This document shows, piece after piece, positions 1 through 18,870 of a DNA stretch of 64,000 bases. The stretch comes from Draconibacterium orientale (GTDB lineage: Bacteria; Bacteroidota; Bacteroidia; Bacteroidales; Prolixibacteraceae), in assembly GCF_000626635.1 (NCBI RefSeq), contig NZ_CP007451.1, positions 4,508,501-4,572,500 on the forward strand. Reading direction: 5' to 3'. The notes under the pieces are model-generated. The model saw nothing but the letters and a program-made list of their open reading frames with translations. It was not told the origin of the DNA and searched no databases. Both the position numbers and the translations under genes were made by a program. How positions within the stretch are numbered: the stretch's first letter is position 1; every line of letters begins with the position of its first letter.

Positions 1-146
1 AGTTTAGCCGGATGTATTGGAAATCTGTACGTCAGCAAAACTTACCGGTAACAATCAAATACCCGGAAATGGTGGCTGAAATATTCCCCCATTTCTCCGG
101 CAATGAAATCCCCGAGTTCGGAAAAGATAATTTGTGGTTTTTATAA
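1..146 (+). CDS. Prokaryotic Argonaute, C-terminal end of PIWI domain (5' part outside window)
   Basis: An open frame runs from base 3 to the TAA at 144-146 and encodes 47 residues. The order is an S-R-M-Y-W stretch, then L-P-V-T-I-K-Y-P-E, then a C-terminal L-W-F-L. Eukaryotic PIWI proteins end the same way (M-Y-W, a P-x-x-x-K-Y segment, then L-F-F-L), and the basic/Tyr segment and C-terminal carboxylate form part of the pocket that holds the guide 5' end. Argonautes use small nucleic-acid guides to bind or cut invading DNA. Only the tail is visible, so neither catalytic residues nor the long or short type can be judged. mcrB begins 43 bases downstream on the same strand. The call rests on recognising a short C-terminal signature. 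Confidence 0.7.
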   Translation, partial: FSRMYWKSVRQQNLPVTIKYPEMVAEIFPHFSGNEIPEFGKDNLWFL

Positions 147-189
147 AAAAAGAAACAGCAAAAATACACAACTATTAAAACGTAATTAA

Positions 190-1686
190 ATGGAACAAGT
201 TAAGACTTCGCAGTTTGAACAAATTTGTAAGAATATAGATGTATGGTCACAGTGGAGAGATCAATACAAGATCTATGTTCCTCTGTTCATTGAAGAAGCT
301 AAGCAAAACAAACACTGGTCGCTTTGGGAGAAAGATTTGTTTTTTGAATTTTTTGAAAAATCAAACGATCAATGTGTTTCCTCTCTTCGTCAAGGATACT
401 TTACGAACAAAGAGAAACAAGATATTAAAGATCATTGGGATGAGTTGTCTCCTCTGTTTGCACAAATAGCAGAAAACCAAGATATACCTCAATGGGAAGC
501 TTATGATGCATTGAAAAAGACAATCCGAAAATATACAAAGGTTGACAGACGTGCCGCTACTAATAGACTGGTAGCCTCTTTGCAACCTCGATTGCTTTCT
601 ACTATCGTCAATGAGGATAACCTTTCCGAGCTTTATTGGTTTCTCCAACATAAAACAGACGAGCAAATTCCTCCATATGTTGGCGGTAATTGGTTTCAAA
701 ACAGTTATAACATTCTGCAATTCTTTAAACAGAAACTTACCGATCTGGATTACTACGATATAATAACATACCCATGGCAGGTCAGGGATTCATTTTTACA
801 TGCAAAAAGTAAGAACGAACAAGTAACAAAAAAGCAAAATATGGAAATCGATTTCTTGAAAAAAGTAAAAAACGTGATATATACCGGTGCGCCAGGCACA
901 GGAAAAACTTACAAAGCAAAACAGTTAGCGAAAACTATAACCAATTATAACGAGGATCAGGATGACGGTCGTATAGCTTTTGTTCAGTTTCACCCATCTT
1001 ATGATTATACTGATTTTGTGGAAGGTCTGAGACCAGTAAAGTCTGCCGAACAAAAAGAAGTTTCGTTTGAATTGCGAGATGGAATATTCAGAAGTTTCTG
1101 CGAACGAGCTAAAAATGACGAGGAAAACGATTATGTATTAGTAATTGATGAAATAAATCGTGGTGAGATTTCCAAGATATTTGGAGAGCTATTTTTCTCA
1201 ATTGACCCAGGTTACAGAGGCCGTAAAGGAAGTGTATTAACACAATATGCTAATCTTAGGAAGAAGGAAGACCAATACTTCTACGTGCCGGATAACGTCT
1301 ATATCATTGGCACAATGAATGATATCGACAGAAGTGTTGAAAGTTTTGATTTTGCAATGCGTCGTCGTTTCGCTTGGCGCGAAATTAAAGCCAGCGAACA
1401 AACAGATATGTGGCTTGGAAAAATTGATGCCTGGATAGACGAAGCACAAGATAGAATGGAAAGGCTCAACAAAGCCATCGAGAAAACTGAGGGACTAAGT
1501 TCTGCTTATCACATTGGGCCAGCTTACTTTTTAGTTCTAAAAGACCATGATGGAGATTTTAGTAAACTGTGGAACTACCACATTGAACCACTATTGACTG
1601 AATACTTGCGTGGTTTCCCAAACCCGTCAGAAACACTTAAAAAACTTCAATGGAGATACGATGGCTCAGATATCCAGAACAACTGA
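190..1686 (+). CDS. mcrB: McrB-like AAA+ GTPase subunit of a McrBC restriction system
   Basis: This is the motor subunit of a modification-dependent restriction enzyme, which translocates DNA and activates the McrC nuclease. Residues 1 to about 210 are an N-terminal region I cannot assign; in this family that part reads the modified base or other target. The AAA+ module follows: Walker A GAPGTGKT at about 233-240, the F-H-P-S-Y-D-Y-T-D-F-V-E-G segment typical of McrB, Walker B V-I-D-E-I-N-R-G-E around 317-325, and the sensor G-T-M-N-D-I-D-R-S near 375 followed by A-M-R-R-R-F. The M-N-D variant occupies the place of the M-N-T-A-D McrB signature. At 498 residues it is a normal size. The end overlaps mcrC by 26 bases, which suggests coupled translation. 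Confidence 0.93.
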   Translation: MEQVKTSQFEQICKNIDVWSQWRDQYKIYVPLFIEEAKQNKHWSLWEKDLFFEFFEKSNDQCVSSLRQGYFTNKEKQDIKDHWDELSPLFAQIAENQDIPQWEAYDALKKTIRKYTKVDRRAATNRLVASLQPRLLSTIVNEDNLSELYWFLQHKTDEQIPPYVGGNWFQNSYNILQFFKQKLTDLDYYDIITYPWQVRDSFLHAKSKNEQVTKKQNMEIDFLKKVKNVIYTGAPGTGKTYKAKQLAKTITNYNEDQDDGRIAFVQFHPSYDYTDFVEGLRPVKSAEQKEVSFELRDGIFRSFCERAKNDEENDYVLVIDEINRGEISKIFGELFFSIDPGYRGRKGSVLTQYANLRKKEDQYFYVPDNVYIIGTMNDIDRSVESFDFAMRRRFAWREIKASEQTDMWLGKIDAWIDEAQDRMERLNKAIEKTEGLSSAYHIGPAYFLVLKDHDGDFSKLWNYHIEPLLTEYLRGFPNPSETLKKLQWRYDGSDIQNN

Positions 1687-3031
1687 TAACAATCAGGGAA
1701 AAAAGATAACCGACATTTTTAAAGGATCAGATCACACGAAATGTGCATCTGATCTGGCTCTAATTGCCGGAATTCCGGTCTCAACTTTGGTTGAAAAGAA
1801 TGACAGTTTACTTGTGTTTCCGGCTGTTGTTAATGAGTATGGTGATGATATAGGAAACTCCTCTGTTTTTTCTTTGTCAGCAGACAAACTCACCACTTAC
1901 AATTTAATGGGATTTATCGGATGTAATCAAACAGAGTTGACGATCGCTTCCCGATTTTACTCGAAAGGGAATGATTACTTTTTGCACTATATGCTGCAAA
2001 AAGTCTTTTCGATCAATTTGTTCGATCTGAAACACAGTACTGACAAAGAAAACCTCTGGGATTTCCTAATTTATCTTTTGCCATTTTACTTGAAAAAGGC
2101 ACTTTCCCAAGGTCTATTTAAACAGTATCAGAATCAGGAGTACAATAATCCGAGTGTCAAAGGCGCGATTGATATCAACCGGCATATCCGCTCGAACATA
2201 CCTTTTACCGGTAATATTGCTTTTAGAACAAGAGAACATGTATACGACAATTGGATGACACAATTGATTCGTCATTCAATCGAATATGTACTAAAGCATA
2301 AACGGGGAGCAAGTGTTCTCAATGCTGATGTCGAAACACAAACCGCTATAACCCAGATTAAGTTGGCAACACCGGCTTACAATGAACGCCACAGAACCCG
2401 CATTATTCAAATGAATCTAAAACCAGCAAATCATCCTTTTTTTACAGAGTATAGAGTATTGCAAAAAATTTGCTTGCAGATTCTGCGGAGAGATGGTTTG
2501 ACTTATGGCGAAGAGAAAGATAAAGTTTACGGGCTGCTCTTTGATGGCGCCTGGTTATGGGAAGAATATCTAAATACAATCTTGAAACAAATAAACTTTG
2601 TTCACCCAAGGAACAAAGGGAAATCTGGTGATAAAAATCCGATTTATCTCTTCAATGGAAACAGTTATAGCCGTTTTCCTGACTTCTATTGTCATTCGAA
2701 AAAAATGGTTTTAGATGCGAAATATAAACACTTGGATAATAAAAAGATATCGCGCGAAGATATTCACCAAATTGTAACCTATATCCATGTTCTAAGATCA
2801 GAACTGGGAGGATTCATTTATCCTATTGGAACAAATGGCATAAATGAACCGGTTACTATAAAAACAATAGGACTTTTAAACGGATTTGGAGGAAGAGTCA
2901 TCTCTGCAGGAATACCTATATATAAACAAAGTAAATCTTTCGATGATTTTGCATCCAAAATGAAAATTACGGAGAGCTGTCTCGTCGATGAAGTTATTAA
3001 CATGACACAGAGGCAATTGACATCTAATTAG
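1661..3031 (+). CDS. mcrC: McrC-like nuclease subunit of McrBC restriction system
   Basis: This is the nuclease partner of McrB. The C-terminal half has a PD-(D/E)xK core: R-F-P-D-F-Y followed by V-L-D-A-K-Y-K, at about residues 339-361. The central region has the R-x-x-V-K-G-A-I-D-I-N type segment common in McrC proteins. I chose the ATG at 1661 because GGAG lies at the right distance upstream and the start sits inside the mcrB end, the usual coupled arrangement; a GTG at 1610 in the same frame would give a 17-residue extension of doubtful reality. The product is 456 residues. The gene closes the operon, and the inverted repeat at 3038-3073 lies just after it. Confidence 0.92.
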   Translation: MAQISRTTDNNQGKKITDIFKGSDHTKCASDLALIAGIPVSTLVEKNDSLLVFPAVVNEYGDDIGNSSVFSLSADKLTTYNLMGFIGCNQTELTIASRFYSKGNDYFLHYMLQKVFSINLFDLKHSTDKENLWDFLIYLLPFYLKKALSQGLFKQYQNQEYNNPSVKGAIDINRHIRSNIPFTGNIAFRTREHVYDNWMTQLIRHSIEYVLKHKRGASVLNADVETQTAITQIKLATPAYNERHRTRIIQMNLKPANHPFFTEYRVLQKICLQILRRDGLTYGEEKDKVYGLLFDGAWLWEEYLNTILKQINFVHPRNKGKSGDKNPIYLFNGNSYSRFPDFYCHSKKMVLDAKYKHLDNKKISREDIHQIVTYIHVLRSELGGFIYPIGTNGINEPVTIKTIGLLNGFGGRVISAGIPIYKQSKSFDDFASKMKITESCLVDEVINMTQRQLTSN

Positions 3032-3037
3032 CCAAAG

Positions 3038-3073
3038 AAATATCTACATTATCTTTAGACAATGTAGATATTT
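3038..3073. promoter_or_regulatory. Perfect 13-bp inverted repeat between mcrC and the WYL regulator gene
   Basis: The arms 3038-3050 and 3061-3073 are exact reverse complements, separated by 10 bases. No T-run follows on the + strand, so a simple rho-independent terminator is not obvious. The repeat lies 70 bases before the start of the WYL-domain regulator, which makes an operator for that protein plausible. An ATATTTACA string from the right arm recurs just after the regulator gene near 4059. The role is inferred. Confidence 0.6.
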
Positions 3074-3142
3074 ACATGTGCTCGGACATGTTATGTCGTA
3101 GCCGATTCCTAACTTTAATTCAAAATTGAAATTAATACGCCT

Positions 3143-4057
3143 ATGTCAGACCGCAAAACCGTCCTCCGCTATTTCCATATCCTGAACAGACTCCGTAAAT
3201 CACCGGCTTCTTTCAGGGAAATTGATGCTTATCTGAGCATGCAATCCGAGTGGCAGGATGAAAATTTTAACGTTTCCAAAAAACAGTTTGCCCGCATTCT
3301 AAAAGATATCAGTTCCATTTTTGAACTAGATATTGAATACGATGCTAGCCGGAATGTGTACTTTATTGACGAAGAAAGTGAGTCGAATATCGCCCAAAGA
3401 CGACTGGAAGCCTTGGATACTTTTCACGCGTTAAAAGTTGGTGAGGATACTTCGAAAATTATCCATTTTGAACAACGTCATCCGCAAGGCTCCGAATACC
3501 TGATGACCTTAATTCAGGCCATTAAAAAAGAAGTTCGAGTGCAGTTCACTTACCAAAAGTTTTGGGACAACTTTTTCACCTCAAGAACAGTTGAACCTTA
3601 TGCCCTCAAAGAATTCAAAAACCGGTGGTACCTGGTAGCCAAGGACAAAAAGGACGACAAGATCAAAACCTTCGGTCTGGATCGTCTCTCCAATCTGATT
3701 CTGTCGGACATTAAATTCGCAGTCCCGGATACATTTAGTGTCGACAGCTACTTTCAGCACTGCTTTGGAATTATTACAACCGAAGAAGATGAACCCAAAG
3801 ATGTCGTTCTTTCTTTTCCTCCGTATCAGGGAAAATACATCAAAACAATGCCCCTCCACGAATCGCAGGAAATATTGATCGACAATGAAAATGAAGTCAG
3901 AATCCGTCTAAAACTATTCCTAAGCTACGACTTCTTGTTGGAGATCTTGTCACATGGTGATAATGTCAAAGTAATTAGTCCGCTGAAATTAGTAGAGCAA
4001 ATCAAAGCCGTATATAAAAATGCTTTAAAACAGTATTCTTATGAAACGAGTATGTAA
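3143..4057 (+). CDS. WYL-domain transcriptional regulator (YafY/DeoR-like)
   Basis: The N-terminal roughly 90 residues form a winged-helix-like region starting R-K-T-V-L-R-Y-F-H-I-L-N. A WYL domain follows at about 125-200, with V-E-P-Y-A-L-K-E-F-K-N-R-W-Y-L-V-A and then F-G-L-D-R-L. A WCX-like C-terminal extension ends the protein. WYL domains bind ligands, often nucleic-acid-derived, and this family frequently controls phage-defence operons (BrxR, CapW). Here it follows mcrBC and a perfect inverted repeat, so control of neighbouring defence genes or of itself is likely but inferred. The length of 304 residues is usual. No SD site is obvious, as is normal in Bacteroidota. Confidence 0.88.
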   Translation: MSDRKTVLRYFHILNRLRKSPASFREIDAYLSMQSEWQDENFNVSKKQFARILKDISSIFELDIEYDASRNVYFIDEESESNIAQRRLEALDTFHALKVGEDTSKIIHFEQRHPQGSEYLMTLIQAIKKEVRVQFTYQKFWDNFFTSRTVEPYALKEFKNRWYLVAKDKKDDKIKTFGLDRLSNLILSDIKFAVPDTFSVDSYFQHCFGIITTEEDEPKDVVLSFPPYQGKYIKTMPLHESQEILIDNENEVRIRLKLFLSYDFLLEILSHGDNVKVISPLKLVEQIKAVYKNALKQYSYETSM

Positions 4058-4134
4058 AATATTTACACCTAAGATGATAATTAAAATTCATGCGAGTTCC
4101 ATACGATGCCTTATAAATACACAATTTTAATCGT

Positions 4135-4518
4135 ATGAAAAGATTAATTGAAATTGCCGACCAACTGAATATCCTCCTGAATACTGAATCGTTGGACATT
4201 CCATTGCTGAATAAACTGGCGCTTGAATTATCGCAAACATCTAATCCGCGCATCAAGCTTCTCGATTTCGAAAAGTACAATGAGGAAAACTTGGCAAAGT
4301 TGACAGCCGAAAAATTCACAAAGATCAAAGAACAGGATTTTGAAGCAGGAGCCAATGCCCGGGAGCAGGAAAAAGAATGCCTCAAGTACACAAAATTTCA
4401 AAAGTACTTCAAACTGAAAAATTCCTTCTTCTACCCCGAAGATGACAAACTCTTTTACTTCTACCTGGGTACAGAAAAAAATGATAAATTAATTAAAGCC
4501 TCTCTGTTTGAGGAATGA
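4135..4518 (+). CDS. Small protein with a UVR-like motif, function unknown
   Basis: This 127-residue soluble protein has no signal peptide or membrane segment. Residues about 65-90 (E-K-F-T-K-I-K-E-Q-D-F-E-A-G-A-N-A-R-E-Q-E) resemble the UVR motif, a helical hairpin with the pattern D-F-E-x-A-A-x-x-R-D-x-I that mediates protein contacts in UvrB, UvrC and some Clp-associated proteins. The rest is Lys/Glu-rich and matches nothing I know. It lies 77 bases after the WYL regulator on the same strand and may be its partner or target. I have no firm function. Confidence 0.6.
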   Translation: MKRLIEIADQLNILLNTESLDIPLLNKLALELSQTSNPRIKLLDFEKYNEENLAKLTAEKFTKIKEQDFEAGANAREQEKECLKYTKFQKYFKLKNSFFYPEDDKLFYFYLGTEKNDKLIKASLFEE

Positions 4519-4601
4519 ATACTATTACATGGCTGTATCAGATTCCATCCGCTGACTCTTATCTAACTTGCAGCCTACTATTCAGTACTTGCGACCATAA
4601 G

Positions 4602-4638
4602 GAAAAGAGGAAAGCAAATAAATCACTTTCCTCTTTTC
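4602..4638. repeat. Perfect 13-bp inverted repeat (strong hairpin)
   Basis: The arm GAAAAGAGGAAAG at 4602-4614 is exactly complementary to 4626-4638, with an 11-base loop. It begins 84 bases after the UVR-motif gene. It could end transcription from either side, although no long T-run follows it. Confidence 0.6.
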
Positions 4639-4815
4639 AGGGGCATGAGAGCCAAAAAATGACCCTCTCACCTTTTTATACTGGATTTGCCAGTTCTGTA
4701 ATTTGTTGAGTAAATAAAGGTCGGCTAAAAAGATGAAAATCTGCAATTAGCAAAAATTAAATAGAAAGCTTGAATATCCTCCCATGTGCCTACAGTAGGT
4801 TCATTCCATTCGTTT

Positions 4816-4836
4816 GACCCGAAATTCTTTCGGGTC
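4816..4836. repeat. Perfect 9-bp hairpin with 3-base loop
   Basis: GACCCGAAA at 4816-4824 pairs with TTTCGGGTC at 4828-4836 around a TTC loop. It is a very stable stem in either strand's transcript, and no T-run follows. It sits in a cluster of weaker stems and may belong to a structured RNA or a recombination site. Confidence 0.55.
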
Positions 4837-4960
4837 CACTCATTGCATTCACCAACTTCGGCAACCCACACAAGAGTAGCTTGGCATTCCATTTTATTCC
4901 ATGCCAGGCTCCCCTTGCCTTTGCCAACCCGCGGCAAAAATCACAGCACTACTCCATAAA

Positions 4961-5665
4961 TTAAATACAGATGAAATTTATTTTTTTGATGTCCCTTCGT
5001 TTATCGGTAGTAACTCGGGCGTTAGGCTGATGAATCCAGTCAACATGAGCATTAAGCTGCTTCAACTCAAGCTGAAATAGTGAATAGACACTTTTCCCGA
5101 TGACCAAAATATTTTCAGGTTTTTCTTCCAATAAAATAGGCTTACAGTAATTCAGAAAGGAAGTGACTAAAATATCGTTCATATCATTGATGGATGGCTT
5201 CTGCCTGTTTTGATATAAGCCAACAATACTGCAATCGAGCAACCATACACCACTATCCTTCAAAAACTGAAGCAGTTGAATTTTTTGCTCAAGCTTATCT
5301 TTCGGATTTTGATTATTGACCACACGAAATTTGTTTCCGGCAATTTCGTTAAACAATTTCCAAAACTGAGGAGTACCACCATTATTAGGCGGCGATTCTG
5401 GTAAAGTATCACTTTGCCCATAAGCCAGATTATAAACAAAGCGCACATAACTGGTAGGATAATCAGGTAGATTTATTGTGTGTTTAAATGCCAATTCAAA
5501 CTCGTCTGTAAAAACATGTGATTCCGCGAAAAGGATGGTTTTTATCCGTTGAGGTTTCCAGTATAAACGATAATCATTCACAAGCTTGACGACAGGATAA
5601 CTCTCAAAAGTCAAATTAGGATGTTCCTGAATTATTTTATTGTAGGTCGATTTTAGAGCAGTCAT
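4961..5665 (-). CDS. Possible uracil-DNA-glycosylase-superfamily protein
   Basis: This soluble protein has 234 residues counted from the ATG at 5665. The frame is open to a GTG at 5719, but that start lies inside the 21-bp repeat and is less likely. Visible segments are I-K-T-I-L-F-A-E-S-H-V-F near residue 43, W-L-L-D-C-S-I-V-G-L-Y in the middle, I-L-V-I-G-K-S-V-Y-S-L-F near 190, and W-I-H-Q-P-N-A-R close to the end. The order (hydrophobic strand with polar loop, a V-I-G-K strand, then H-x-x-x-A-R) resembles UDG-fold proteins, whose last motif is H-P-S-x-R. No standard catalytic motif is certain. It is transcribed against the neighbouring defence genes. Confidence 0.42.
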   Translation of the reverse strand: MTALKSTYNKIIQEHPNLTFESYPVVKLVNDYRLYWKPQRIKTILFAESHVFTDEFELAFKHTINLPDYPTSYVRFVYNLAYGQSDTLPESPPNNGGTPQFWKLFNEIAGNKFRVVNNQNPKDKLEQKIQLLQFLKDSGVWLLDCSIVGLYQNRQKPSINDMNDILVTSFLNYCKPILLEEKPENILVIGKSVYSLFQLELKQLNAHVDWIHQPNARVTTDKRRDIKKINFICI

Positions 5666-5715
5666 TAATTCAATAGATATTGATTGTTCAGCAGACCAAA
5701 GATAACTAACCCCTC

Positions 5716-5736
5716 CCACAATTCCACACAGGAAAA
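5716..5736. repeat. 21-bp direct repeat, left copy
   Basis: Bases 5716-5736 are identical to 8387-8407 in the same orientation; the repeat core is CACAATTCCACACAGG. The two copies enclose the DUF3883 gene and little else. Outside the 21 bases and a short CT-N stretch the flanks do not match. Confidence 0.85.
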
Positions 5737-5859
5737 AATCATACCTGCTAATTAAAAATATTGTTTCCGAATTTTAACATATATATCTTTATGCCGACTC
5801 GATGCTCTTGTTAAAGAGTATAATGGTACGCTAAAAATAACAAACCTATTGTGAAATAT

Positions 5860-8220
5860 ATGATTGAAATAGTTGACATTAACCCCGACATAATAAGAAT
5901 AAATTATGAAATAGATGTAAAAGGTGGCAAGCCTGTAAAGTTCTCAGACACAATTAATTTTTCTGATATTCTGGCTGACTTTAAGCCTATCCATTACAGA
6001 TATTGTGATTATCAGGATGAAATTGACTTTCTAAAACCATTCACCGATTATCTTCTAACAAGGCGTGCAGGAGAGGAAAATTGGATTTTAGCTTATGAAA
6101 GTGATTTTGAAGAGTCCCGTGAAATGTTTAAAAGATATTTTTTATGGGGCCTTTGGCGTTTTAAAGAAAAATTCTTTTCACATTCAAATTCGTATATACA
6201 GAATGTTGAGGATGAATACTCCAGATATAATAAAAATCCCAAACAACAATTATTCATACAATTACAAAAGCTTCTATTAAATGGTAAAAGCAACCAGCAC
6301 CTGGCGCTGGAAGAAACCGAAATAGGGACCTTAAAAGAGGCATCAATTATTGAGATATTAGAGAAATATTTCGATAAAATTGATATTATGGTTCACAATT
6401 GTGTAGAAGAAAGTAGGCGATTGATTGGAAAGATCAAAATGGAATATAACGAAAGGGTTGCTCATATTGAACAACTTGGATTTTCTCATCCATTTGGAAT
6501 AGACTTAAGTTCCGTTTTCAGAAATGAGGACACTTTCTTTACCTTTTTCATTAAAGAAATTAGAAAAAATAAGGCAGAACAGCTATCTAAAAAATATAAG
6601 AGAGATTTCGTTGCGTACGCAAAAGACATTTCGATAGAGACGATTTTGATCAAGACAGATTATCCAATGGGGCCAATCTGGGGAAGTAAATACCATGATA
6701 ACCTATTTAGTAATGCAACTCCCCCATTTCGACGAATACATTTTATGGAATTCTCGTCAGAAAACGGGTATAACTTTCCATACTTTTATTATAGTTTTGG
6801 TGATTTTGATCCTTCAAAAAATGAAATCCATTTCCTTAATTTCCTTGAGGATTATCTTGATAATTTATCGGGAATCGAAATAGAGACAAAACCAGCGCCT
6901 CAGCACGACTGTTATGTTCTGAAATTACTTATTAATGATCATGAGTTCGCAACTGAGTTCGCGCGAATAATTCATAAATATAACGAAAATTGGACAGGGA
7001 ATAAATGGACAAAAAACACAAGTGCATCCATCTCAATATTAATCCCCTTTGATTCAAAATGTTCCTTTATTAACAATAGAGTTGATAAATTAGATTTCAA
7101 GAATGGAAGATTGGCAGCAACAAAAGGGAATTTTGAAGGAATCTACATTCTTAAAAATGATAAACTAATCAAAAAGGATATTTCACTTCTTTTAGAACAA
7201 TCGTGGAGAGCAGATAAGCAATTGGAAAGGTTGTCCTGGGATGTAAATAAGCAATCAGAATTTATAAAAAGTGATTTTAATGTAATTATAAATAATGTAT
7301 TCTCAGAAAGTAAATTCAACGCCTTTTTCGAAGTAAAAAAGAATAAAATTCGGGATAGCAGAAATCAGTTGAGCTATGACCTCATAAGGAAAGTCAGCAA
7401 AATCCAAAATATTAAATTGAATTTTTTCAAAGATGAAATCTTTAATAAAAGTAAGGATTCAATTAATAAAATAGAAAATCAACATCAGTTTGTAATTTCA
7501 AAAACAAGGAAGCGTAACAATGAAGATTTTGGCCGAAAAGCTGAACAGGAAGTATATAAATACTTCTCCCAAAAACTTCTTACATATCAGCTTTCAATTA
7601 ACTTAATTGGATCAAATTTCCCTTTTGTAAAAGACCTTAAAGTTGAATGGAATAATAAAAATGAAGAATCATATTTGCCATATGATATGGTTTTTAAGTG
7701 CGAAGACTTTGAATTTTTCATTGATGTAAAAGCAACCAGGGGAACAAAAGATACCATTTTTTATCTCAGTATAGCTGAATTGAAAAAAATATTAGAAGAT
7801 CCTAAACGATACGCTATTGCCCGAGTTTATTATGATGAAGATTCTTTCGATGATAACTTTATTCAACTAAATTCAGAACTAAACCTGAGTTTTTATCAAG
7901 TATCAAATGAAACAATCAAAATTATCAATGAAAACATTGACGAGTGGGAAAATTACTATGAGGAGAATAGCATTCGTTTCAATTTGTCACACTTTGAAAA
8001 GTTTGTTATGCCTGAAAATACAAAAAAGCTAATTGATAAATATTGTGCTGAATACCATAGAGATTTTCGCTGCATCGTATCTAAACTCGTGGACGAATAT
8101 GCATCTGATTTAATTTTTACAGCAGATTACTACCAGGCCCTAACTAAAGATAACGAATTGAAGAAGTATATTGAAAAAAGAAAAAATACGTTTATTAATT
8201 ACATCGTATCTGAGAATTAA
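5860..8220 (+). CDS. Large protein with C-terminal DUF3883 nuclease-like domain
   Basis: This 786-residue protein starts at the ATG at 5860; a GTG three codons earlier is also possible. Residues 1 to about 550 are Lys/Asn/Phe-rich and unrecognised. A DUF3883 domain occupies about 555-700: F-G-R-K-A-E-Q-E-V, then L-P-Y-D-M-V-F, then F-F-I-D-V-K-A-T, the D...(D/E)-x-K core of the PD-(D/E)xK nuclease fold, followed by F-Y-L-S-I-A-E-L. DUF3883 proteins are common in restriction and other defence loci. The gene is markedly AT-rich and stands alone between two 21-bp direct repeats, which suggests separate acquisition. It is likely a stand-alone effector; its target is unknown. Confidence 0.78.
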   Translation: MIEIVDINPDIIRINYEIDVKGGKPVKFSDTINFSDILADFKPIHYRYCDYQDEIDFLKPFTDYLLTRRAGEENWILAYESDFEESREMFKRYFLWGLWRFKEKFFSHSNSYIQNVEDEYSRYNKNPKQQLFIQLQKLLLNGKSNQHLALEETEIGTLKEASIIEILEKYFDKIDIMVHNCVEESRRLIGKIKMEYNERVAHIEQLGFSHPFGIDLSSVFRNEDTFFTFFIKEIRKNKAEQLSKKYKRDFVAYAKDISIETILIKTDYPMGPIWGSKYHDNLFSNATPPFRRIHFMEFSSENGYNFPYFYYSFGDFDPSKNEIHFLNFLEDYLDNLSGIEIETKPAPQHDCYVLKLLINDHEFATEFARIIHKYNENWTGNKWTKNTSASISILIPFDSKCSFINNRVDKLDFKNGRLAATKGNFEGIYILKNDKLIKKDISLLLEQSWRADKQLERLSWDVNKQSEFIKSDFNVIINNVFSESKFNAFFEVKKNKIRDSRNQLSYDLIRKVSKIQNIKLNFFKDEIFNKSKDSINKIENQHQFVISKTRKRNNEDFGRKAEQEVYKYFSQKLLTYQLSINLIGSNFPFVKDLKVEWNNKNEESYLPYDMVFKCEDFEFFIDVKATRGTKDTIFYLSIAELKKILEDPKRYAIARVYYDEDSFDDNFIQLNSELNLSFYQVSNETIKIINENIDEWENYYEENSIRFNLSHFEKFVMPENTKKLIDKYCAEYHRDFRCIVSKLVDEYASDLIFTADYYQALTKDNELKKYIEKRKNTFINYIVSEN

Positions 8221-8386
8221 AACGAACATTTTTAAATTATCAATAATCCTGTGAGGTCAATTACTTGTAATAAAAAGAATTTTAACGCCTTACAAGCTAT
8301 CATAAAGCGAAATTGAAGTGTCATTTTATCGATTAATAAAGGGATTCGTTCCACTCTCTAATTAATAACAAAAAATACGATCTCTA

Positions 8387-8407
8387 CCACAATTCCACAC
8401 AGGAAAA
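8387..8407. repeat. 21-bp direct repeat, right copy
   Basis: This is an exact copy of 5716-5736 in the same orientation. It lies 166 bases after the DUF3883 stop codon and marks the beginning of the C-rich segment. Confidence 0.85.
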
Positions 8408-9446
8408 GCGGTGTTCGTCCGCCTTCTTCGGCAAGCCCGGTGCCAGCCCGTTTAGTCCTTTTTTATGAATCGTCAATTTTTATGGTGTAAAAAAGCACTA
8501 ACCGCCCTGCGGGTTCGCTGCGCTCAGGCTGTCACAGTGCTTGCAACTCAGTCGTTGTCCTCACGGCAGCCTACTCTGTCCAGCAAGCCGCTTCACTTAT
8601 TTCACCGCTACTACGTTCAGAGCTTCGTACCTCAACTACTTCACTCCGTACCAGTTCCATTCGTTTCAGCCGCTCGCAGTCCACCGGCTGCCAGTGTTAG
8701 GCTCGCCTGCTGGTCGCTGCGGGCTGCGGCTGAATTATCTGATTTGCCTCCGCTTCGCTCTGGCATTTTTCAGCGGTAGCCTTGTGTACTCGTTCCACTC
8801 CGTGTTTCCTTCCCTAAAACCACCCCAAAACACGACGTTCCACTTCGCACATATGCCGCAAAGGGTTATCGGATTCTCAAACCATCTCTTTGCATCACCC
8901 TTGCTCCACTCGCAGGCGGCTCGCGATGCTTGGTCAGTGTCCGCAAACCATTCCGCTGCGCTCCATTCATTGCAGCCACCGCCCAGCCGTTTGACTCAAG
9001 GCTGTTTCTCCTGTGTGTAATTTTTTCCGACGCACCCGTGCAAAAACCATCGATACAGCATTCCGAAACCGGTTTGAACCAATTAAAAAGCATTCCCCTC
9101 AACCCTACCCGGTTTAATTGATTGCGCAAACAAATTTAAAGTCGGTCTGAATCGACCAAAAGACTACGGCATAAAGCCGCTTCGCTATTTATTCCGTTTC
9201 CTTTTGTCCGTTTCATCCCTTTGATTTTTTCGGTGTTTACGCATTCAATTAAGCCCCATTGAATCATTACCTACTGACAGTTTCAAGATTGTCAGTCAAT
9301 TGAATGAAAAACGATGCAAACCACCTTTAGAAACCTTAATTGCCCAATGTTTGATATTCAGAAAACGACAGTCGCATGGTTTGAGCCGAGTTTCCTCCGT
9401 GCCAACTCCAAGTGACAATTTGTTGAACACTTAAATGATAAAGAAA
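8408..9446. other. C-rich, apparently non-coding segment upstream of the DUF6266 gene
   Basis: This is about 1.04 kb with no gene I can defend. Base use is unlike either neighbour: in bases 8581-8640, for example, I count 21 C and 8 G on the + strand, and poly-pyrimidine runs recur. Frames open on both strands (8465-8779, 8541-9020, 8866-9129 minus) give low-complexity Leu/Ser/Arg/Pro products typical of non-coding DNA. Small hairpins are present, such as CTGACA/TGTCAG near 9275-9296, GGTC/GACC near 9150 and GCACT/AGTGC near 8495-8540. It could be a long structured RNA, an unusually long leader of the DUF6266 gene, or a decayed element. Confidence 0.5.
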
Positions 9447-10085
9447 ATGGGAAAGATTTCTCAAGGTATTTTAGGAGGGTTCTCAGGAAAAGTGGGAACT
9501 GTAATCGGTGGTAACTGGAAAGGTATCGACTACATGCGTAGCAAAGCATCTAAAGTTACCAACCCGAACTCGAAAGCTCAAAAAGACCAACGGTCTAAGT
9601 TCTCTCTGGTTTTGTCTTTCTTGCAACCAATCACTGCTTTTATTAAAATTGGTTTTAAAGACTATGCCATTAAAATGACAGCATTTAACAGTGCCATGTC
9701 TTACAACGTGAAGAATGCTATAACCGGCGCTTACCCGAATTATAGCATGGACTATGCCCAGGCATTGGTTAGCCGTGGCTCTCTAGCAGGAGCTTTGAAC
9801 CCGGCTGCAAACTCTGCCGCTGCCGGTGAAGTTACTTTCACTTGGGAGGATAATTCAGTCGAATCAAACGCCAATGTGGACGATTTGACTATGCTTCTAG
9901 CTCTGAATCCAGACAAAAACGAAGCAGTATTTACGACTGAAGGTTCTACCCGCGCAGCAGGAACCCAAACGCTGACCGTACCGGACAGCTATTCCGGTGA
10001 CTCTGTTGAATGTTTTATCGCTTTCATTAGCGTTGATGGTGAAGTTGCTAACAGCAAGTACATTGGTTCGGTTGTAGTTGCTTAG
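9447..10085 (+). CDS. DUF6266 family protein
   Basis: This 212-residue protein begins M-G-K-I-S-Q-G-I-L-G-G-F-S-G-K-V-G, the hallmark start of DUF6266, followed by G-N-W-K-G-I-D-Y-M-R-S-K-A and a basic N-P-N-S-K-A-Q-K-D-Q-R segment. I chose the ATG at 9447 because family members start there; an ATG four codons upstream is also possible. The N-terminus is basic and Gly-rich, while the second half looks like a beta-sandwich (E-V-T-F-T-W-E-D). There is no signal peptide or membrane segment. Members are widespread and often multicopy in Bacteroidota, and I know of no assigned function. A terminator follows at 10108, so it is probably transcribed alone with the long C-rich leader. Confidence 0.85.
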   Translation: MGKISQGILGGFSGKVGTVIGGNWKGIDYMRSKASKVTNPNSKAQKDQRSKFSLVLSFLQPITAFIKIGFKDYAIKMTAFNSAMSYNVKNAITGAYPNYSMDYAQALVSRGSLAGALNPAANSAAAGEVTFTWEDNSVESNANVDDLTMLLALNPDKNEAVFTTEGSTRAAGTQTLTVPDSYSGDSVECFIAFISVDGEVANSKYIGSVVVA

Positions 10086-10107
10086 CAGTATATTTCGGAT
10101 TTCAATT

Positions 10108-10137
10108 AAAACCGCTTTATTCAAGGCGGTTTTTTTG
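10108..10137 (+). terminator. Rho-independent terminator after the DUF6266 gene
   Basis: An AAACCGCTT arm and an AAGGCGGTTT arm form a stem with one bulged base and a 5-base loop, followed by a run of T. It begins 23 bases after the DUF6266 stop. Confidence 0.85.
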
Positions 10138-10162
10138 TTTCTTTTATGTAAAAAATATCGTC

Positions 10163-11314
10163 ATGGAAAAAATCGTTTTTACGCGAAAGGAACTTTATGA
10201 ACTGGTTTGGAGTGAGCCATTATCCAGATTAGCAAGAAAATACAACATCTCCGACAATGGTATCCGAAAGAGATGTAAGAAGATGAATATTCCTTTACCC
10301 AAAGCCGGTCACTGGTCAAAAATACAACATGGATACAAAGTTATAGTGCCAAAGCTGCCTGGCAAATATGAAGGAGAAAACGAAACTATTCTATGCTATC
10401 GTGATAAGGATGGCAACTATGTTGAAAAGGTGGATGTGGTCACTCCTCAAACCAAATTAAAACATGAATTACAAAATGATCCCCAATTGCCATTAACCGT
10501 ACCGGAAAAAATTACTCGCTTTGATAGTCTAATTGCTCAGGCAAAGAAATCTTTACAAAAGAAGAGTTCGGGAGTATACAACTATGAGGGAATGAGAGCT
10601 ACTGAACGTGGTGAAATTAATATCATGGTATCAGAATCCAATATTGACAGAGCCTTATATTTTATGAATACATTGATAAAATTATTTCGCGCAAGAAAGC
10701 ACAATATAATCATCGAAGATAATGAAACGTATGCGGTCATTTTTGGAGAAAAACTACCGATCAAGTTTAAAGAGAAAGCAAAAATTTCTTATGAAACTAG
10801 TACATATGGCTGGAGAAGCCGCACCTATCATCCAAGTGGGAAACTTGCTTTTGTACATGACAATCGTCCATATAATCAAAAGGAATGGTTAGACGGCAAA
10901 AAACCATTAGAATCACGTTTAGCTGAAATTTTAGCCTATTTTGAAACATATGCAAAGAAAGAAATCGAAGATCGAATTGAATGGGAAAAACGCCGTAAAA
11001 TTGAGGAGGAGGAACAGAAAAGACAGCAAGAGCTTCAAATTAAAAAGAACGATGAAATAAGAAGAATTAAAGTGCTTATAAATATGGCCAATTACTGGAA
11101 GCAAGCACAAATTCTGCGAGATTATATCACAGCTCTTGAAAACACCAATGGATTGGATTTTAAAAAAATGGATTGGATTCCTTGGGCAAAGCAAAAATTT
11201 GAATGGTTCGATCCATTTACTCAAGGACCAGACGAAATACTCGATGATGACGACCGACAAGAACTAATGGAAGAACTCAATAAAAAAGTGCCAAGGTCAA
11301 ATTCCTATTGGTAA
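10163..11314 (+). CDS. HTH and coiled-coil protein of unknown function
   Basis: Residues 5-55 (F-T-R-K-E-L-Y-E-L-V-W, then L-A-R-K-Y-N-I-S-D-N-G-I-R-K-R-C, then P-L-P-K-A-G-H-W) read as a helix-turn-helix of a family common in accessory DNA. The middle, about 110-240, is a mixed alpha/beta region I do not recognise. Residues about 255-305 are a highly charged Glu/Lys/Arg coiled coil. The 383-residue protein has no signal peptide. It lies between the DUF6266 unit and the tRNA fragment at the island edge, so it may be part of the mobile cargo. It could be a regulator or a DNA-binding defence component; I cannot choose. Confidence 0.6.
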   Translation: MEKIVFTRKELYELVWSEPLSRLARKYNISDNGIRKRCKKMNIPLPKAGHWSKIQHGYKVIVPKLPGKYEGENETILCYRDKDGNYVEKVDVVTPQTKLKHELQNDPQLPLTVPEKITRFDSLIAQAKKSLQKKSSGVYNYEGMRATERGEINIMVSESNIDRALYFMNTLIKLFRARKHNIIIEDNETYAVIFGEKLPIKFKEKAKISYETSTYGWRSRTYHPSGKLAFVHDNRPYNQKEWLDGKKPLESRLAEILAYFETYAKKEIEDRIEWEKRRKIEEEEQKRQQELQIKKNDEIRRIKVLINMANYWKQAQILRDYITALENTNGLDFKKMDWIPWAKQKFEWFDPFTQGPDEILDDDDRQELMEELNKKVPRSNSYW

Positions 11315-12157
11315 GAAATCGAAAACAATAATTAGTTTGGTCCCATCGAATCATAAGATGTTTTTCCAGTTGGAAAGTTTTCAAAATGCAGCCAAACAAA
11401 TCGTCGTCATATAATTAACGATAGACAGATATTTTTATAACTTTGTGTCAGATAACAAGTTCTTTAAGATATGTCGTACCGTGTTGTCATTTGTGGCTTT
11501 TGACGGTTTCCATGTTCCTACATGGATTAACAAATTAAATCAATTGCTTATGGATACAACAATTACATCTTGCATTCTGATGGCGGGGCTCATAGTGTGG
11601 AATCCATGAATGTTACAAATTATACACGATAGACGTACGGTTGAGCCGGGGGTTCGAATCCCCCGTTCCGCACCCCTTTTTCTTATGCTTGTTGTACGAT
11701 TTCTTATAATTGGATGGATTTTGTACCCTATTTGTAGCCCAATCATTATAAATAACTAATAATCAACATGTGTTACTTTCTGTATCGGAAAGTAATCTAA
11801 ACGCTCTCGGATTCAAGTGTGTGGCCAATGGGGTTGCTACCAAAACGTGCTCCAATATTTTACATGGAATGTTCTTTCTTCCCCGAAATTGTTGTTCTGT
11901 CAAGGCTGCTCGATTTGAACATATCATAGAAAGGTTATCTCACTCTTTGAGTTTTACTCTAATTTTTATTGCATTTACGCCTTGCCCTAATTTTTAATAT
12001 TCCCCTGAATATCTTACCTTTAATAAAGAAAGTAGGGAAAAACATAAATCACACAATTTCCCGGGAGAAATAAGTTAGGGCACTCCGTTTTTTTCAAGGA
12101 ATTAATGAAAAATTCCTAGTTCACGATCAAGCATCGAAAAAGAATAATGCAAGTATC
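11315..12157. other. Island-edge intergenic region
   Basis: This is 843 bases with no convincing gene; the short frames on both strands look spurious. It contains the tRNA 3' fragment at 11646-11672, a GAATATT-type inverted repeat near 12000, and an exact AGGAATT/AATTCCT inverted repeat near 12097-12117, about 40 bases before the next gene. Confidence 0.55.
11646..11672 (+). other. 3' fragment of a tRNA gene, candidate attachment site
   Basis: A complete T arm is present: GGGGG at 11648-11652, loop TTCGAAT, CCCCC at 11660-11664. The 3' acceptor strand GTTCCGC (11665-11671) and discriminator A (11672) follow. No matching 5' acceptor strand (GCGGAAC) or D arm lies within 90 bases upstream, so the gene is not complete. 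Such fragments are left at the distal end when an element integrates into the 3' end of a tRNA gene. Given the orientation, the element would lie to the left of this site. The isotype cannot be read from the fragment. Confidence 0.75.
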
Positions 12158-12916
12158 ATGAAAAAATTAGTCATCTTTTTCATTATTTGCTTTCACCCAA
12201 TTATTTTAATTGCGCAGCAAACCAACAATAATTCACCTGTAGCTGATCATCAAAATCCTTTACAAATCACTATTTTTTCCGAGTATACCACACAACATTA
12301 TTGGCGGGGACTTGGGCGGGGAAATCTATTTGGGAAAGGCCCTGCTTTTGAGTCAAGAATAATTTTCAAGCAAAACAAATGGACTTACGGCCTGTTTGCA
12401 GCAGCATCTTTCGACAATATCTATAAAACGGCTATGCCTTTTGTTATTTACAATGTAAACTACCAATTTTCTGTAGCCCTGCAAGATATTTATTCTCCAG
12501 GCAAAACATTTTGGCAATCCGATCCATTGAATTTCAACATTAATGAATCGAAACATTTTGTTGATTTTTACACCACCTATAAATTCAAAAAAATCCCATT
12601 AAACCTAAAATGGGCTTCCGTTGTGTTAGGATACGACCCGAAAGAAGATGGTGGAAGGAATTTCTCATCATACGCCGAAGTTTCCACAGTGCATAAATTT
12701 GGAAGATGGCAGGCATCTGGAGCAATTGGTGTAACTCCGTGGAAAGGACTTTATGCAAAAGAAGCCGGGATTTGCAACCTTGAAACCAAACTTCAATATA
12801 ACTTTACTACAAGCGAAACCGTACCCTCTTGCATCTATGTAAAGGCAACTTACAACACCATAACTAATTTTTCGCATTTTATTGCCGGAGCAACATTTAC
12901 GCTAAAACTTAAATAA
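12158..12916 (+). CDS. Putative outer-membrane beta-barrel protein
   Basis: A signal peptide (K-K-L-V-I-F-F-I-I-C-F-H-P-I-I-L-I-A-Q) is followed by about 230 residues of alternating aromatic and polar strands, such as E-Y-T-T-Q-H-Y-W-R-G-L-G and W-T-Y-G-L-F-A-A-A-S-F, with a hydrophobic C-terminus (F-T-L-K-L-K). The R-G-L and G-P-A-F motifs recall the TorF/Gcw_chp type of predicted porins, but the match is weak. It precedes the MFS transporter and M20 amidohydrolase genes on the same strand and may supply their substrate across the outer membrane. It is intact, unlike the two genes after it. Confidence 0.6.
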   Translation: MKKLVIFFIICFHPIILIAQQTNNNSPVADHQNPLQITIFSEYTTQHYWRGLGRGNLFGKGPAFESRIIFKQNKWTYGLFAAASFDNIYKTAMPFVIYNVNYQFSVALQDIYSPGKTFWQSDPLNFNINESKHFVDFYTTYKFKKIPLNLKWASVVLGYDPKEDGGRNFSSYAEVSTVHKFGRWQASGAIGVTPWKGLYAKEAGICNLETKLQYNFTTSETVPSCIYVKATYNTITNFSHFIAGATFTLKLK

Positions 12917-13006
12917 GTAGTGATGGCTGCATTATAAAACAGTACGAACTAAAATCAAGATATACAAGTGAATACAATTCATTTTTAACAATAAAAACTT
13001 ACTGGC

Positions 13007-14457
13007 ATGACAAATTCAGTTGAATACAAAGGAAATGATAAGTTATTATTTGGTATCATTCTTGGCGTTTTGGCGTTTTGGCTCTTTGCGCAAACCACCT
13101 TAAACATCAATGTTGATATGGCGAAAGACCTCAACATGGATGTATCGATGATGAACATTGCCGTCTCAATTACAGCATTGTTTTCGGGTATTTTTATTGT
13201 TGTATTTGGAGGGTTAGCCGATAAAATCGGACGAATGAAACTGATTCGTATCGGATTTTATTTTAGCATTACCGGTTCACTTTTAGTCGGCCTTACACCA
13301 GTTGGGGGTGCTGCTGCTGCCGTTTTAATTCTTGGCCGCATTTTTCAGGGACTTTCGGCGGCCGCCATAATGCCTGCAAGTTTGGCGTTGGTAAAAGCCT
13401 ATTGGCAAGGTAAAGAGCGGCAACGTGCCATTTCATTATGGTCTATGGGGTCGTGGGGCGGTTCCGGTTTTGCTGCACTCTTTGGCGGACTGATGGTTAA
13501 TGTTGGCTGGCGATGGATTTTCTTTTCCGCTGCTGCTCTTGCAGTCATAGGTTTGATCATGATAAAAGGTACCCCGAAAGTAAGGCCGAAGGAAAAGAAC
13601 ATAACAAAAATGATTATGCCGGTATTTTTACATTTATGCTGGCAATGATTGGCCTGCAAATATTAGTAACCAAAGGTTCACAATTAGGCTTTACCAGCGT
13701 TATCGGGATTGTTTTAATCGCTGCAACACTCCTTTTTTCATTTATATTCTTCTACATTGAAAAAGGGAAAAAAGGTGCTTTTATCGATTTTAAGTTGTTT
13801 AATAACATGATTTTTACCGGCGCTACTATTTCAAACTTTTTGCTCAATGGTACTGCCGGAATGTTAATCGTATCGCTCATGCTTCTACAGGTTGGCGGAA
13901 ACCTTTCGGCACAGGAAGCCGGAATGCTAACCTTAGGCTATGCCATTGCCATTGTTTTGTTTATCCGTATGGGTGAAAAACTATTGCAGCGATTTGGAGC
14001 ACGCAAACCCATGATTTGGGGTTCGCTCATCGTAGGAGTGGCCATCTTCCTTCTCATGTTTACCAATGTAATGACCGATACGTATAAAATACTGGCGATT
14101 ATTGCTTATACCTTATTTGGATTAGGCCTGGCATTTTACGCTACTCCATCAACTGATGCCGCATTATCGAACCTGCCCGGAAATCAGGCCGGTGCTGGTG
14201 CGGGAATTTACAAAATGGCATCATCGCTGGGCGCTGCATTTGGTGTGGCTATTTCTGCCGGCGTTTTTGCTGCATTCAATGTTGGCGACCATATTCAATG
14301 GTTAGAAGGTGTACTCACTTTTGTAGGACGTCAGGACAATGTAGTGGTACGTCAGGCGGCTATTATTGGTCTGGGAGTAAACCTGATGATGATCGTTATG
14401 GCCATTCTTTTTATAATGATTACAATACCTAAATCTACAGGAAAAGCCAATGACTGA
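13007..14457 (+). pseudogene. MFS transporter (14-TM, DHA2/EmrB-like), frameshifted
   Basis: Two overlapping frames make one transporter. Bases 13007-13648 give the first six or so helices, with the MFS motif G-G-L-A-D-K-I-G-R near residue 70 and G-R-I-F-Q-G-L-S-A-A near 110. The remainder continues one frame over to 14457. The junction lies in a run of five A's near 13606-13610: six A's would restore K-N-D-Y-A-G-I-F-T-F and continuous homology. Either this is a recent null allele or a one-base sequencing deletion. With the M20 amidohydrolase gene downstream it probably formed an uptake-plus-hydrolysis unit, or a drug-efflux unit; the substrate is unknown. Confidence 0.82.
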
Positions 14458-14505
14458 TTCAATGCTCAAATTTATCTTTTTAGTAACTTGTTAAAAACGA
14501 ATTCA

Positions 14506-15669: not shown

Positions 15670-15825
15670 CTATTTTTAAAACTCGCAATGCTTTTATTTA
15701 TGGGGTGAACAGTACTTTAGGACGCACGACTCCATCCTCAAAACCTAGAATGGTGCCGTAAAAATAGCATCAGTTTTAGTGCTTGATCTATAATACGCAA
15801 AAAAGAATCATCAAAATTCAACAAT

Positions 15826-15863
15826 AAAAAAGTGCATTCCGTTCACGAAATGCAACTTTTTTA
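15826..15863. terminator. Bidirectional terminator-like hairpin
   Basis: AAAAAAGTGCATT and AAATGCAACTTTTTT pair with one bulge around a short loop, giving T-runs on both strands. It lies between the M20 gene and the IS1595 element and can stop transcripts from either side. Confidence 0.7.
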
Positions 15864-15882
15864 TGGCAACAGGAATTTTTAT

Positions 15883-16877: not shown

Positions 16878-16892
16878 ATTTTTATAAATTCA

Positions 16893-18796: not shown

Positions 18797-18827
18797 AGGC
18801 TGTCCAAAAAGTAAAATTGGACAGCCT
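18797..18827. promoter_or_regulatory. Left-end palindrome of the IS1182 element
   Basis: AGGCTGTCCAA at 18797-18807 is exactly inverted at 18817-18827 around a 9-base spacer, so the left terminal repeat has a second inverted copy just inside. It lies about 45 bases before the transposase ATG. The hairpin could block read-through from outside promoters or act as an extra transposase-binding site; both are inference. Confidence 0.65.
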
Positions 18828-18870
18828 TTGTTTTTATTGTCCCTTTAAGATTTGTATCTTAAAGGTGGAT

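What the first reader, a model, noticed from the sequence alone, without database searches (positions are those of the whole stretch)
1..11672. Defence-type island whose right end is a tRNA 3' fragment
A T arm, 3' acceptor strand and discriminator of a tRNA gene stand at 11646-11672 without a 5' half. Everything to the left is accessory in character (Argonaute tail, McrBC, WYL regulator, DUF3883 protein, DUF6266 unit, direct repeats). From 12 kb on, genes are mostly ordinary for the lineage. Elements that integrate in a tRNA gene leave such a fragment at the far end, and its orientation puts the element on the left.
Basis: partly seen in the sequence, partly recalled or inferred. Interest (0 to 1): 0.75.

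Follow-up and report, generated by a model that had tools for sequence, protein, structure and literature searches.

The report
Defence island integrated at mnmE gene

Summary
The tRNA 3' piece is real (T arm 11648-11664, acceptor strand and discriminator 11665-11672) and the genes to its left are accessory. It is not the attachment site: the genome is a single contig with no second copy of the 25-mer at up to 2 mismatches. The boundary is a 19-bp repeat of the end of mnmE/trmE (window 11777-11795), identical to the end of intact mnmE 37.3 kb to the left, which a tyrosine recombinase follows. In 24 of 27 loci found with that integrase it also lies behind mnmE. Paired mnmE ends 24.7-37.3 kb apart occur in 11 of 33 chosen genomes; relative G009 shows the empty site. 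The sibling element in G006 matches over window 8384-11316 and at the last 96 bp, but has other DNA where the tRNA piece lies. The piece is a passenger, nearest to tRNA-Leu 3' ends. Cargo includes DRT2, DISARM/Druantia-like genes, a PIWI Argonaute, McrBC and a NOV_C protein. Islands at trmE are a known kind (SGI1); this Bacteroidota family is a new member of it.

The parts
1..146 (+). 3' end of a 704-aa PIWI-domain Argonaute (gene starts left of the window, G000 4506532)
   Evidence: Pfam Piwi E 5e-13; PADLOC pAgo E 4e-278
190..1686 (+). McrB-like AAA ATPase, 498 aa
   Evidence: Pfam AAA_5 E 3e-14; name McrB rests on the neighbouring McrC gene
1610..3031 (+). McrC-like protein, 473 aa (true start probably downstream of 1610)
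   Evidence: Pfam McrBC E 4e-53
3143..4057 (+). WYL-domain regulator, 304 aa
   Evidence: Pfam WYL and WCX
4135..4518 (+). 127-aa ORF with a close copy near the right end of the mnmE element of G017 (91% DNA identity)
   Evidence: no Pfam match
4961..5719 (-). 252-aa ORF shared with sibling element G006 (90%)
   Evidence: no Pfam match
5713..5736 (+). 24-bp direct repeat, left copy, flanking the NOV_C cassette
   Evidence: single copy in sibling G006, which lacks the cassette
5851..8220 (+). 789-aa NOV_C (DUF3883-type) protein, TmtA-like
   Evidence: Pfam NOV_C E 1e-9, PADLOC TmtA E 6e-16
8384..8407 (+). 24-bp direct repeat, right copy (1 mismatch to the left copy)
8408..9035 (.). conserved, apparently non-coding segment of the element's right module
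   Evidence: matched, in whole or in pieces, in G006, G007, G336, G332
9435..10085 (+). DUF6266 protein, 216 aa; conserved in the close elements
   Evidence: Pfam E 1e-88; 64-99% in G006, G007, G332, G336
10163..11314 (+). 383-aa ORF; of the ten other elements compared only G006 has it (92%)
   Evidence: no Pfam match
11317..11676 (.). DNA not found elsewhere; occupies the zone that varies between elements just inside the right terminus
   Evidence: sibling G006 has other DNA here; no match in phage or plasmid records (run on 11317-11699); of 11540-11700 only the T arm matches in 60 relatives' top hits
11648..11672 (+). T arm, 3' acceptor strand and discriminator of a tRNA (tRNA-Leu-like), no partner in the genome
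11677..11776 (.). conserved right terminus of the element, with a probable integrase arm site TTTGTAGCCC at 11731-11740
   Evidence: alignment of 7 elements; motif positions
11777..11795 (+). attR: exact 19-bp copy of the end of mnmE (TTTCTGTATCGGAAAGTAA); left copy at G000 4482929-4482947
11796..16880 (.). separate lineage-specific insertion between attR and the native flank (outer-membrane-like ORF, MFS, amidohydrolase-like, IS1595-type transposase 15902-16810); right limit approximate
   Evidence: transposase by Pfam; other names are from reading the translations
16893..18293 (-). Gfo/Idh-type oxidoreductase: native right neighbour of mnmE in relatives
   Evidence: match begins 98 bp after mnmE in G009, 94 and 96 bp after attR in G007 and G002; family name from reading the sequence

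Best explanation
Window 1-11795 is the right third of a 37.3 kb integrative element. Its tyrosine recombinase recombines the element's attP with the last 18-19 bp of mnmE (the FCIGK-stop codons). This leaves mnmE intact at the left end and a copy of its end at the right (attR, 11777-11795). The backbone at the left end is excisionase-like HTH, integrase, DUF6617, HTH, BT4734-N and DUF3987/PriCT_2 primase-type genes. At the right end it is a conserved non-coding segment, DUF6266 and a terminus with arm sites. Between them lie exchangeable defence modules: DRT2, a DrmD/DrmMI/DruE-like cluster, RhuM, an AbiC-like protein, Argonaute, McrBC, WYL and NOV_C. The tRNA 3' fragment is a passenger in the variable zone just inside the terminus, most likely a scrap of a tRNA-Leu-type gene from another genome. 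Shown: att repeats, empty site in a relative, integrase-mnmE linkage, conserved ends, absence of the tRNA piece from the other right ends compared. Inferred: that Int performs the reaction, that the element can still move, that the cargo defends against phages, and the origin of the fragment.
For: Exact 19-bp mnmE-end repeat at both ends. In 24 of the 27 loci that the genome-contig scan gave for the integrase, mnmE lies upstream on the same strand, its end 0.15-0.86 kb before the integrase. Paired mnmE-end copies on one strand and contig, 24.7-37.3 kb apart, in 11 of 33 distinct genomes searched; I chose these genomes, most of them because an integrase lies near mnmE, so this is not a frequency. 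Empty site in G009: 98 bp after mnmE begins the match to the oxidoreductase that follows attR in G002 and G007. TTTGTTGCCC sites (at most 1 mismatch) at +83, +125, +146 from the left repeat and -47 or -48 from the right repeat in all 5 close elements, none near the ends of the 6 other mnmE stretches compared; 1 to 4 further copies lie elsewhere in each of the 5. The last 100 bp or so align among 7 elements, the conserved part starting just right of the tRNA piece. Tyrosine recombinase domains by Pfam. No tRNA by ARAGORN in 15 other right-end or mnmE regions.
Against: In this genome the native flank does not follow attR directly: 5.1 kb of other DNA lies between, so the clean empty/occupied comparison rests on relatives G009, G002 and G007. 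G013, first taken as a second empty site, shares no right-flank gene within 8.6 kb and proves nothing. 3 of 27 integrase loci lack mnmE nearby: L096, L117 (starts at a contig end) and L119 (27% identity). No relaxase or transfer gene was found among the 23 element proteins scanned, so mobility is not shown. ARAGORN does make a full-length, if poor, tRNA call over the fragment, and only 5 of 1000 shuffles do the same.
Confidence: 0.93

Rival explanations
1. One reading: the element integrated into a tRNA gene, and 11648-11672 is the displaced 3' end of that gene.
For: The T arm and acceptor strand are real, the orientation fits, and the piece lies about 105 bp from the true end.
Against: No second copy of the 25-mer in the single-contig genome at up to 2 mismatches, none at up to 1 mismatch in the other 294 order genomes searched. 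Of the 45 tRNA genes Rfam finds in the genome, those printed by ARAGORN (all but one tRNA-Pro) include Leu TAA, CAA, TAG, CAG, GAG and Ser GCT, TGA, GGA, none with this acceptor end. The integrase sits at mnmE with its own repeat. The piece is absent from the related right ends compared.
Confidence: 0.03
2. The fragment marks an older or nested tRNA-Leu-targeted element, whose end was captured inside the mnmE element and then lost its integrase.
For: It lies in the zone just inside the terminus where elements differ. 8 of the 9 nearest matches that ARAGORN calls are tRNA-Leu genes, and the DNA around it was found nowhere else in what was searched.
Against: No second integrase among the 23 element proteins scanned, no direct repeat of the piece.
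Confidence: 0.2
3. The 92-nt stretch 11583-11674 is a working tRNA-like RNA (an odd tRNA or decoy) carried by the defence element.
For: ARAGORN call, matched by only 5 of 1000 shuffles; the 5' GCGGGGC can pair with GTTCCGC.
Against: 4-base anticodon and mismatched anticodon stem, no similarity of the 5' part to 60 tRNAs above shuffles, fold energy ordinary (z -0.94), not found in the other right ends compared.
Confidence: 0.05

Closest known systems
SGI1 and related islands at the 3' end of trmE (mnmE) in Gammaproteobacteria
   Same: Same target: tyrosine-recombinase island inserted at the 3' end of trmE (PMC5704250 Table 1, passages seen; abstract starts of PMC8409611 and PMC6531882, the latter giving a site 18 bp from the 3' end).
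   Different: Different phylum, and backbone genes of the families DUF6617, BT4734-N, DUF3987, DUF6266; defence cargo. No SGI1 sequence was compared: integrase relatedness and helper control were not tested.
Integrative and mobilizable elements of Bacteroidota (NBU1, NBU2, Tn4555 type)
   Same: Integrated elements of the same phylum (PMC5704250, passages); that BT4734-N/DUF3987 primase-type genes are typical of such elements is recalled.
   Different: PMC5704250 counts the few known Bacteroidetes IMEs among those with their own relaxase; none was found here among the 23 proteins scanned.
Mobile defence islands / hotspots (E. coli defence islands, P2/P4 hotspots)
   Same: Conserved integration ends with different defence modules between them (PMC10121019, PMC9122126: search listing and abstract start only).
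   Different: Target gene mnmE, Bacteroidota hosts, and an Argonaute present in 9 of 11 genomes with a close integrase.
Catalytically inactive full-length (long-B) prokaryotic Argonautes
   Same: Best solved relatives by profile are AfAgo and EcAgo; the GVGA motif aligns with GTGA of AfAgo, which from recall is inactive.
   Different: No effector of the kinds in PMC10620215 (abstract start only) was assigned; the class of this Argonaute was not tested by a tree.

Membership tests
Integrative element (genomic island) with site-specific integrase | Tyrosine recombinase gene at one end | tested here: met
   Phage_integrase, SAM-like and arm-binding domains, about 580 bp after mnmE
Integrative element (genomic island) with site-specific integrase | Direct repeats of the target at both ends | tested here: met
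   19-bp exact repeat, 37,348 bp apart
Integrative element (genomic island) with site-specific integrase | Empty site in relatives | tested here: met
   G009 against occupied G002 and G007; in this genome itself a further 5.1 kb insertion follows attR; G013 uninformative
Integrative element (genomic island) with site-specific integrase | Excision to a circle | not testable with these tools
   needs PCR or reads across attP
   single copy in the genome; mnmE at the other border
SGI1 family | Integration at the 3' end of trmE/mnmE | tested here: met
SGI1 family | SGI1 backbone (Int/Xis of SGI1, mobilization genes, IncC control) | not tested
   no SGI1 sequence was fetched; backbone Pfam families here are DUF6617, BT4734-N, DUF3987, DUF6266
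Integrative mobilizable element (canonical, own relaxase) | Relaxase gene | tested here: not met
   no relaxase family among 23 element proteins scanned with Pfam; a 102-aa ORF and ORFs under about 90 aa not scanned
DISARM | drmA, drmB and drmC core | tested here: inconclusive
   The SNF2 helicase matches DrmD (E 7e-113), DrmA (E 1e-82) and BrxHI (E 3e-77) models; methylase DrmMI-like (E 7e-96); large helicase DruE-like (E 1e-111). No DrmB or DrmC among the models listed, but only the best 25 are shown for four of the ten proteins
Prokaryotic Argonaute | PIWI domain | tested here: met
   Pfam Piwi in 4 of 4 proteins tested, from four elements

The most novel reading that the evidence does not exclude
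The mnmE elements of this Bacteroidota family are a dedicated defence-exchange platform with a fixed Argonaute slot. Backbone and ends stay constant, the restriction or DISARM-like module is swapped, and a full-length PIWI Argonaute is kept a few small genes downstream of it. The Argonaute would then act with the neighbouring restriction module or guard the element itself.
Probability: 0.35. Interest if true: 0.6.

Novelty: new member of a known kind. Interest (0 to 1): 0.42.

Why it matters
It corrects the boundary logic: a tRNA scrap near an island's edge is not proof of a tRNA attachment site, and the true site can be found by looking for repeats of the gene next to the integrase. It also gives exact ends for a Bacteroidota element family at mnmE. 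Because both ends are defined, its cargo can be catalogued across genomes, and the recurrent presence of an Argonaute beside changing restriction-type modules can be tested.

Tried and rejected
Rejected: a tRNA attachment site; a hidden complete tRNA (the shuffle result is the one point in its favour); a source for the fragment in what was searched (viral contigs, phages, plasmids, samples of the order, class and phylum): the exact 25-mer was seen in no other record, and the one viral match to a looser pattern is a phage tRNA-Leu(GAG). A tmRNA end: only the T arm matches tmRNA, 17 bits against a cut-off of 47. G013 as a second empty site was dropped because its right flank shares nothing within 8.6 kb with the flanks compared. 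Most short repeats are weak two-copy matches and were not used, except the 24-bp pair at 5713 and 8384. The literature was searched five times, with listings capped at 20, 20, 20, 8 and 12 papers of 25, 212, 25, 9 and 32; none of the listed titles or abstract starts describes mnmE-targeted elements in Bacteroidota. Only one paper (PMC5704250) was opened, and there only passages.
Full report
The observation. The sequence 11648-11672 is a perfect T arm (GGGGG TTCGAAT CCCCC) followed by the 3' acceptor strand GTTCCGC and discriminator A. It is the only match to a strict T-arm pattern on either strand of the 144 kb scanned; the real tRNA-Pro in that stretch is missed by the pattern. ARAGORN turns the piece into a 92-nt tRNA of unknown identity at 11583-11674 with a four-base anticodon and a mismatched anticodon stem. 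Five of 1000 dinucleotide shuffles of the upstream DNA also give a call, all five with a normal anticodon; taken alone that would favour a degenerate 5' half. But the 5' part shows no more similarity to 60 real tRNAs than shuffles do (227 of 500 local, 203 of 500 global). On balance I agree that there is no convincing 5' half. In a sample of 395 class genomes at up to 3 mismatches there are 11 matching places in 10 other genomes; of the 9 for which ARAGORN gave a call with the motif, 8 are tRNA-Leu and one is tRNA-Met.

The window lies in a genome held as one contig (5,132,075 bp). The 25-mer GGGGGTTCGAATCCCCCGTTCCGCA occurs once in it at up to 2 mismatches, in 1 of 295 order genomes at up to 1 mismatch (that one is this genome), and in no viral contig exactly. 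A 38-base version at up to 3 mismatches is found in 1 of 395 phylum genomes, again only here. Rfam finds 45 tRNA genes in the genome. The sequences printed by ARAGORN, all but one tRNA-Pro, include Leu TAA, CAA, TAG, CAG, GAG and Ser GCT, TGA, GGA, and none has this acceptor end. There is no intact partner tRNA.

The true attachment site. In the 80 kb to the left the gene mnmE (trmE) ends with TTTCTGTATCGGAAAGTAA, and about 580 bp later a 362-aa tyrosine recombinase begins. The same 19 bases stand at window 11777-11795, about 105 bp to the right of the tRNA piece. The element between the repeats is 37,348 bp long. In the one scan of the genome collection, 27 loci encode a relative of the integrase. 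In 24 of these 27, mnmE lies upstream on the same strand, ending 0.15-0.86 kb before the integrase; the exceptions are L096, L117 (starting at a contig end) and L119 (27% identity). I then searched 35 handles (33 distinct genomes, since G331 is G006 and G334 is G015), chosen mostly because an integrase lies near mnmE. The mnmE-end pattern occurs twice on one strand of one contig, 24.7-37.3 kb apart, in 11 of the 33. The other 22 have a single copy near mnmE, copies on separate contigs, or copies over 100 kb apart. In G009 the match to an oxidoreductase gene begins 98 bp after mnmE; in G002 and G007 the same gene follows attR at 96 and 94 bp. That is the empty and the occupied site. G013 also has a single copy, but its right flank shares nothing with the others within 8.6 kb, so it is no evidence. 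In the window's genome a further 5.1 kb (11796 to about 16880) lies between attR and the oxidoreductase gene, so the right flank of attR here is not the native one.

The ends. All five close elements (G000, G006, G007, G332, G336) have TTTGTTGCCC, at most one mismatch, at +83, +125 and +146 from the left repeat and at -47 or -48 from the right repeat; the six other mnmE stretches compared have none near their ends. Each of the five also has 1 to 4 copies elsewhere. I read the end copies as integrase arm sites (inference). The terminal segment from about 11677 to attR aligns among seven elements. The tRNA piece ends at 11672, just outside that segment, in a zone that differs between elements: G006 is 93.8% identical over window 8384-11316 and 80.6% over 11700-11795 but carries about 390 bp of different DNA with a small ORF in between, and in G007 only about 117 bp separate the DUF6266 match from the terminus. 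ARAGORN finds no tRNA in any of the 15 other right-end or mnmE regions fetched. The 383 bp around the piece match nothing in the phage or plasmid collections.

The cargo. Backbone: HTH_17, integrase, DUF6617, HTH_17, BT4734-N, DUF3987 with PriCT_2, and DUF6266 at the right. Cargo: DRT2 reverse transcriptase (E 3e-139), an SNF2 helicase that fits DrmD best but also DrmA and BrxHI models, a DrmMI-like methylase, RhuM, a DruE-like helicase, an AbiC/AbiP-like protein, Argonaute, McrB, McrC, WYL and a NOV_C protein. The DRT2, SNF2, methylase, DruE-like, AbiC-like, McrB, McrC and NOV_C proteins have no tblastn match at E 1e-5 in the ten other mnmE stretches, so cargo differs between elements. A 24-bp direct repeat (5713, 8384) flanks the NOV_C gene; G006 has one copy and no NOV_C gene, and its two flanks are contiguous. 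This is either a gain or a loss across the repeat.

Argonaute. With the 704-aa protein as query, 9 of 11 genomes whose integrase is close (70% or more) have a match; G335 and G337, both drafts, do not. In seven (G000, G006, G007, G330, G332, G333, G336) it lies on the same contig and strand, about 8-24 kb downstream of mnmE; in G330 and G333 the right repeat was not seen on that contig, so its place inside the element is inferred. For G742 and G334 the place relative to mnmE is unknown. G048 (integrase 56%) has a match 16 kb downstream of mnmE. In G330 the match is split in two and has a stop. Of 14 genomes with a distant integrase that were searched (L104 and L113 were not given), one has a weak match (25%). 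Of seven genus relatives with another mnmE element or none (G002, G003, G005, G009, G010, G012, G013) none has a match, and G017 keeps a 67-residue remnant with a stop. Three other Argonautes are 40-54% identical to this one, less than the close integrases (70-80%), which fits exchange or fast change. In G332 type I HsdM and HsdR genes stand upstream, confirmed by Pfam, with four ORFs between HsdR and the Argonaute; in the other elements the restriction-type neighbours are judged only from reading ORFs. The profile's best solved relatives are AfAgo and EcAgo.

Verdict. The island is an mnmE-targeted integrative element; islands at trmE are known from SGI1 (PMC5704250, passages).

Noticed in passing
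window 5713-5736 and 8384-8407: 24-bp direct repeat (1 mismatch) around the NOV_C gene; sibling G006 has one copy, no NOV_C gene and contiguous flanks: a cassette gained or lost across the repeat.
   Followed up: partly
window 11796-16880: 5.1 kb insertion between attR and the gene that follows mnmE in relatives; holds an IS1595-type transposase at 15902-16810 and genes that read as metabolic or transport genes.
   Followed up: partly
mnmE 3' ends of G002, G003, G005, G010, G012 (L170-L177, L180, L181): The same mnmE site holds other element types whose cargo reads as non-defence in part; in G002, G005, G010 and G012 the integrase is about 41-46% identical and an ORF read as relaxase-like stands near it (reading only); G003 has no integrase match and polysaccharide-type genes.
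   Followed up: partly
L182, L184, L168, L166/L167, window left of 146: A full-length PIWI Argonaute recurs in the close mnmE elements near different restriction or DISARM-like modules.
   Followed up: partly
L062:3386-17727: Cluster of DrmD/DrmA-like helicase, unknown 269-aa protein, DrmMI/type IIG-like methylase, RhuM, DruE-like helicase and AbiC-like protein: a mix of DISARM and Druantia parts.
   Followed up: partly
L198:7250-8851: DRT2-type reverse transcriptase between the DUF3987 gene and the small HTH gene; none of the ten other mnmE stretches compared has it.
   Followed up: partly
window 18817-20541: 574-aa ORF that reads like a DDE transposase, right of the oxidoreductase gene; not scanned.
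   Followed up: no
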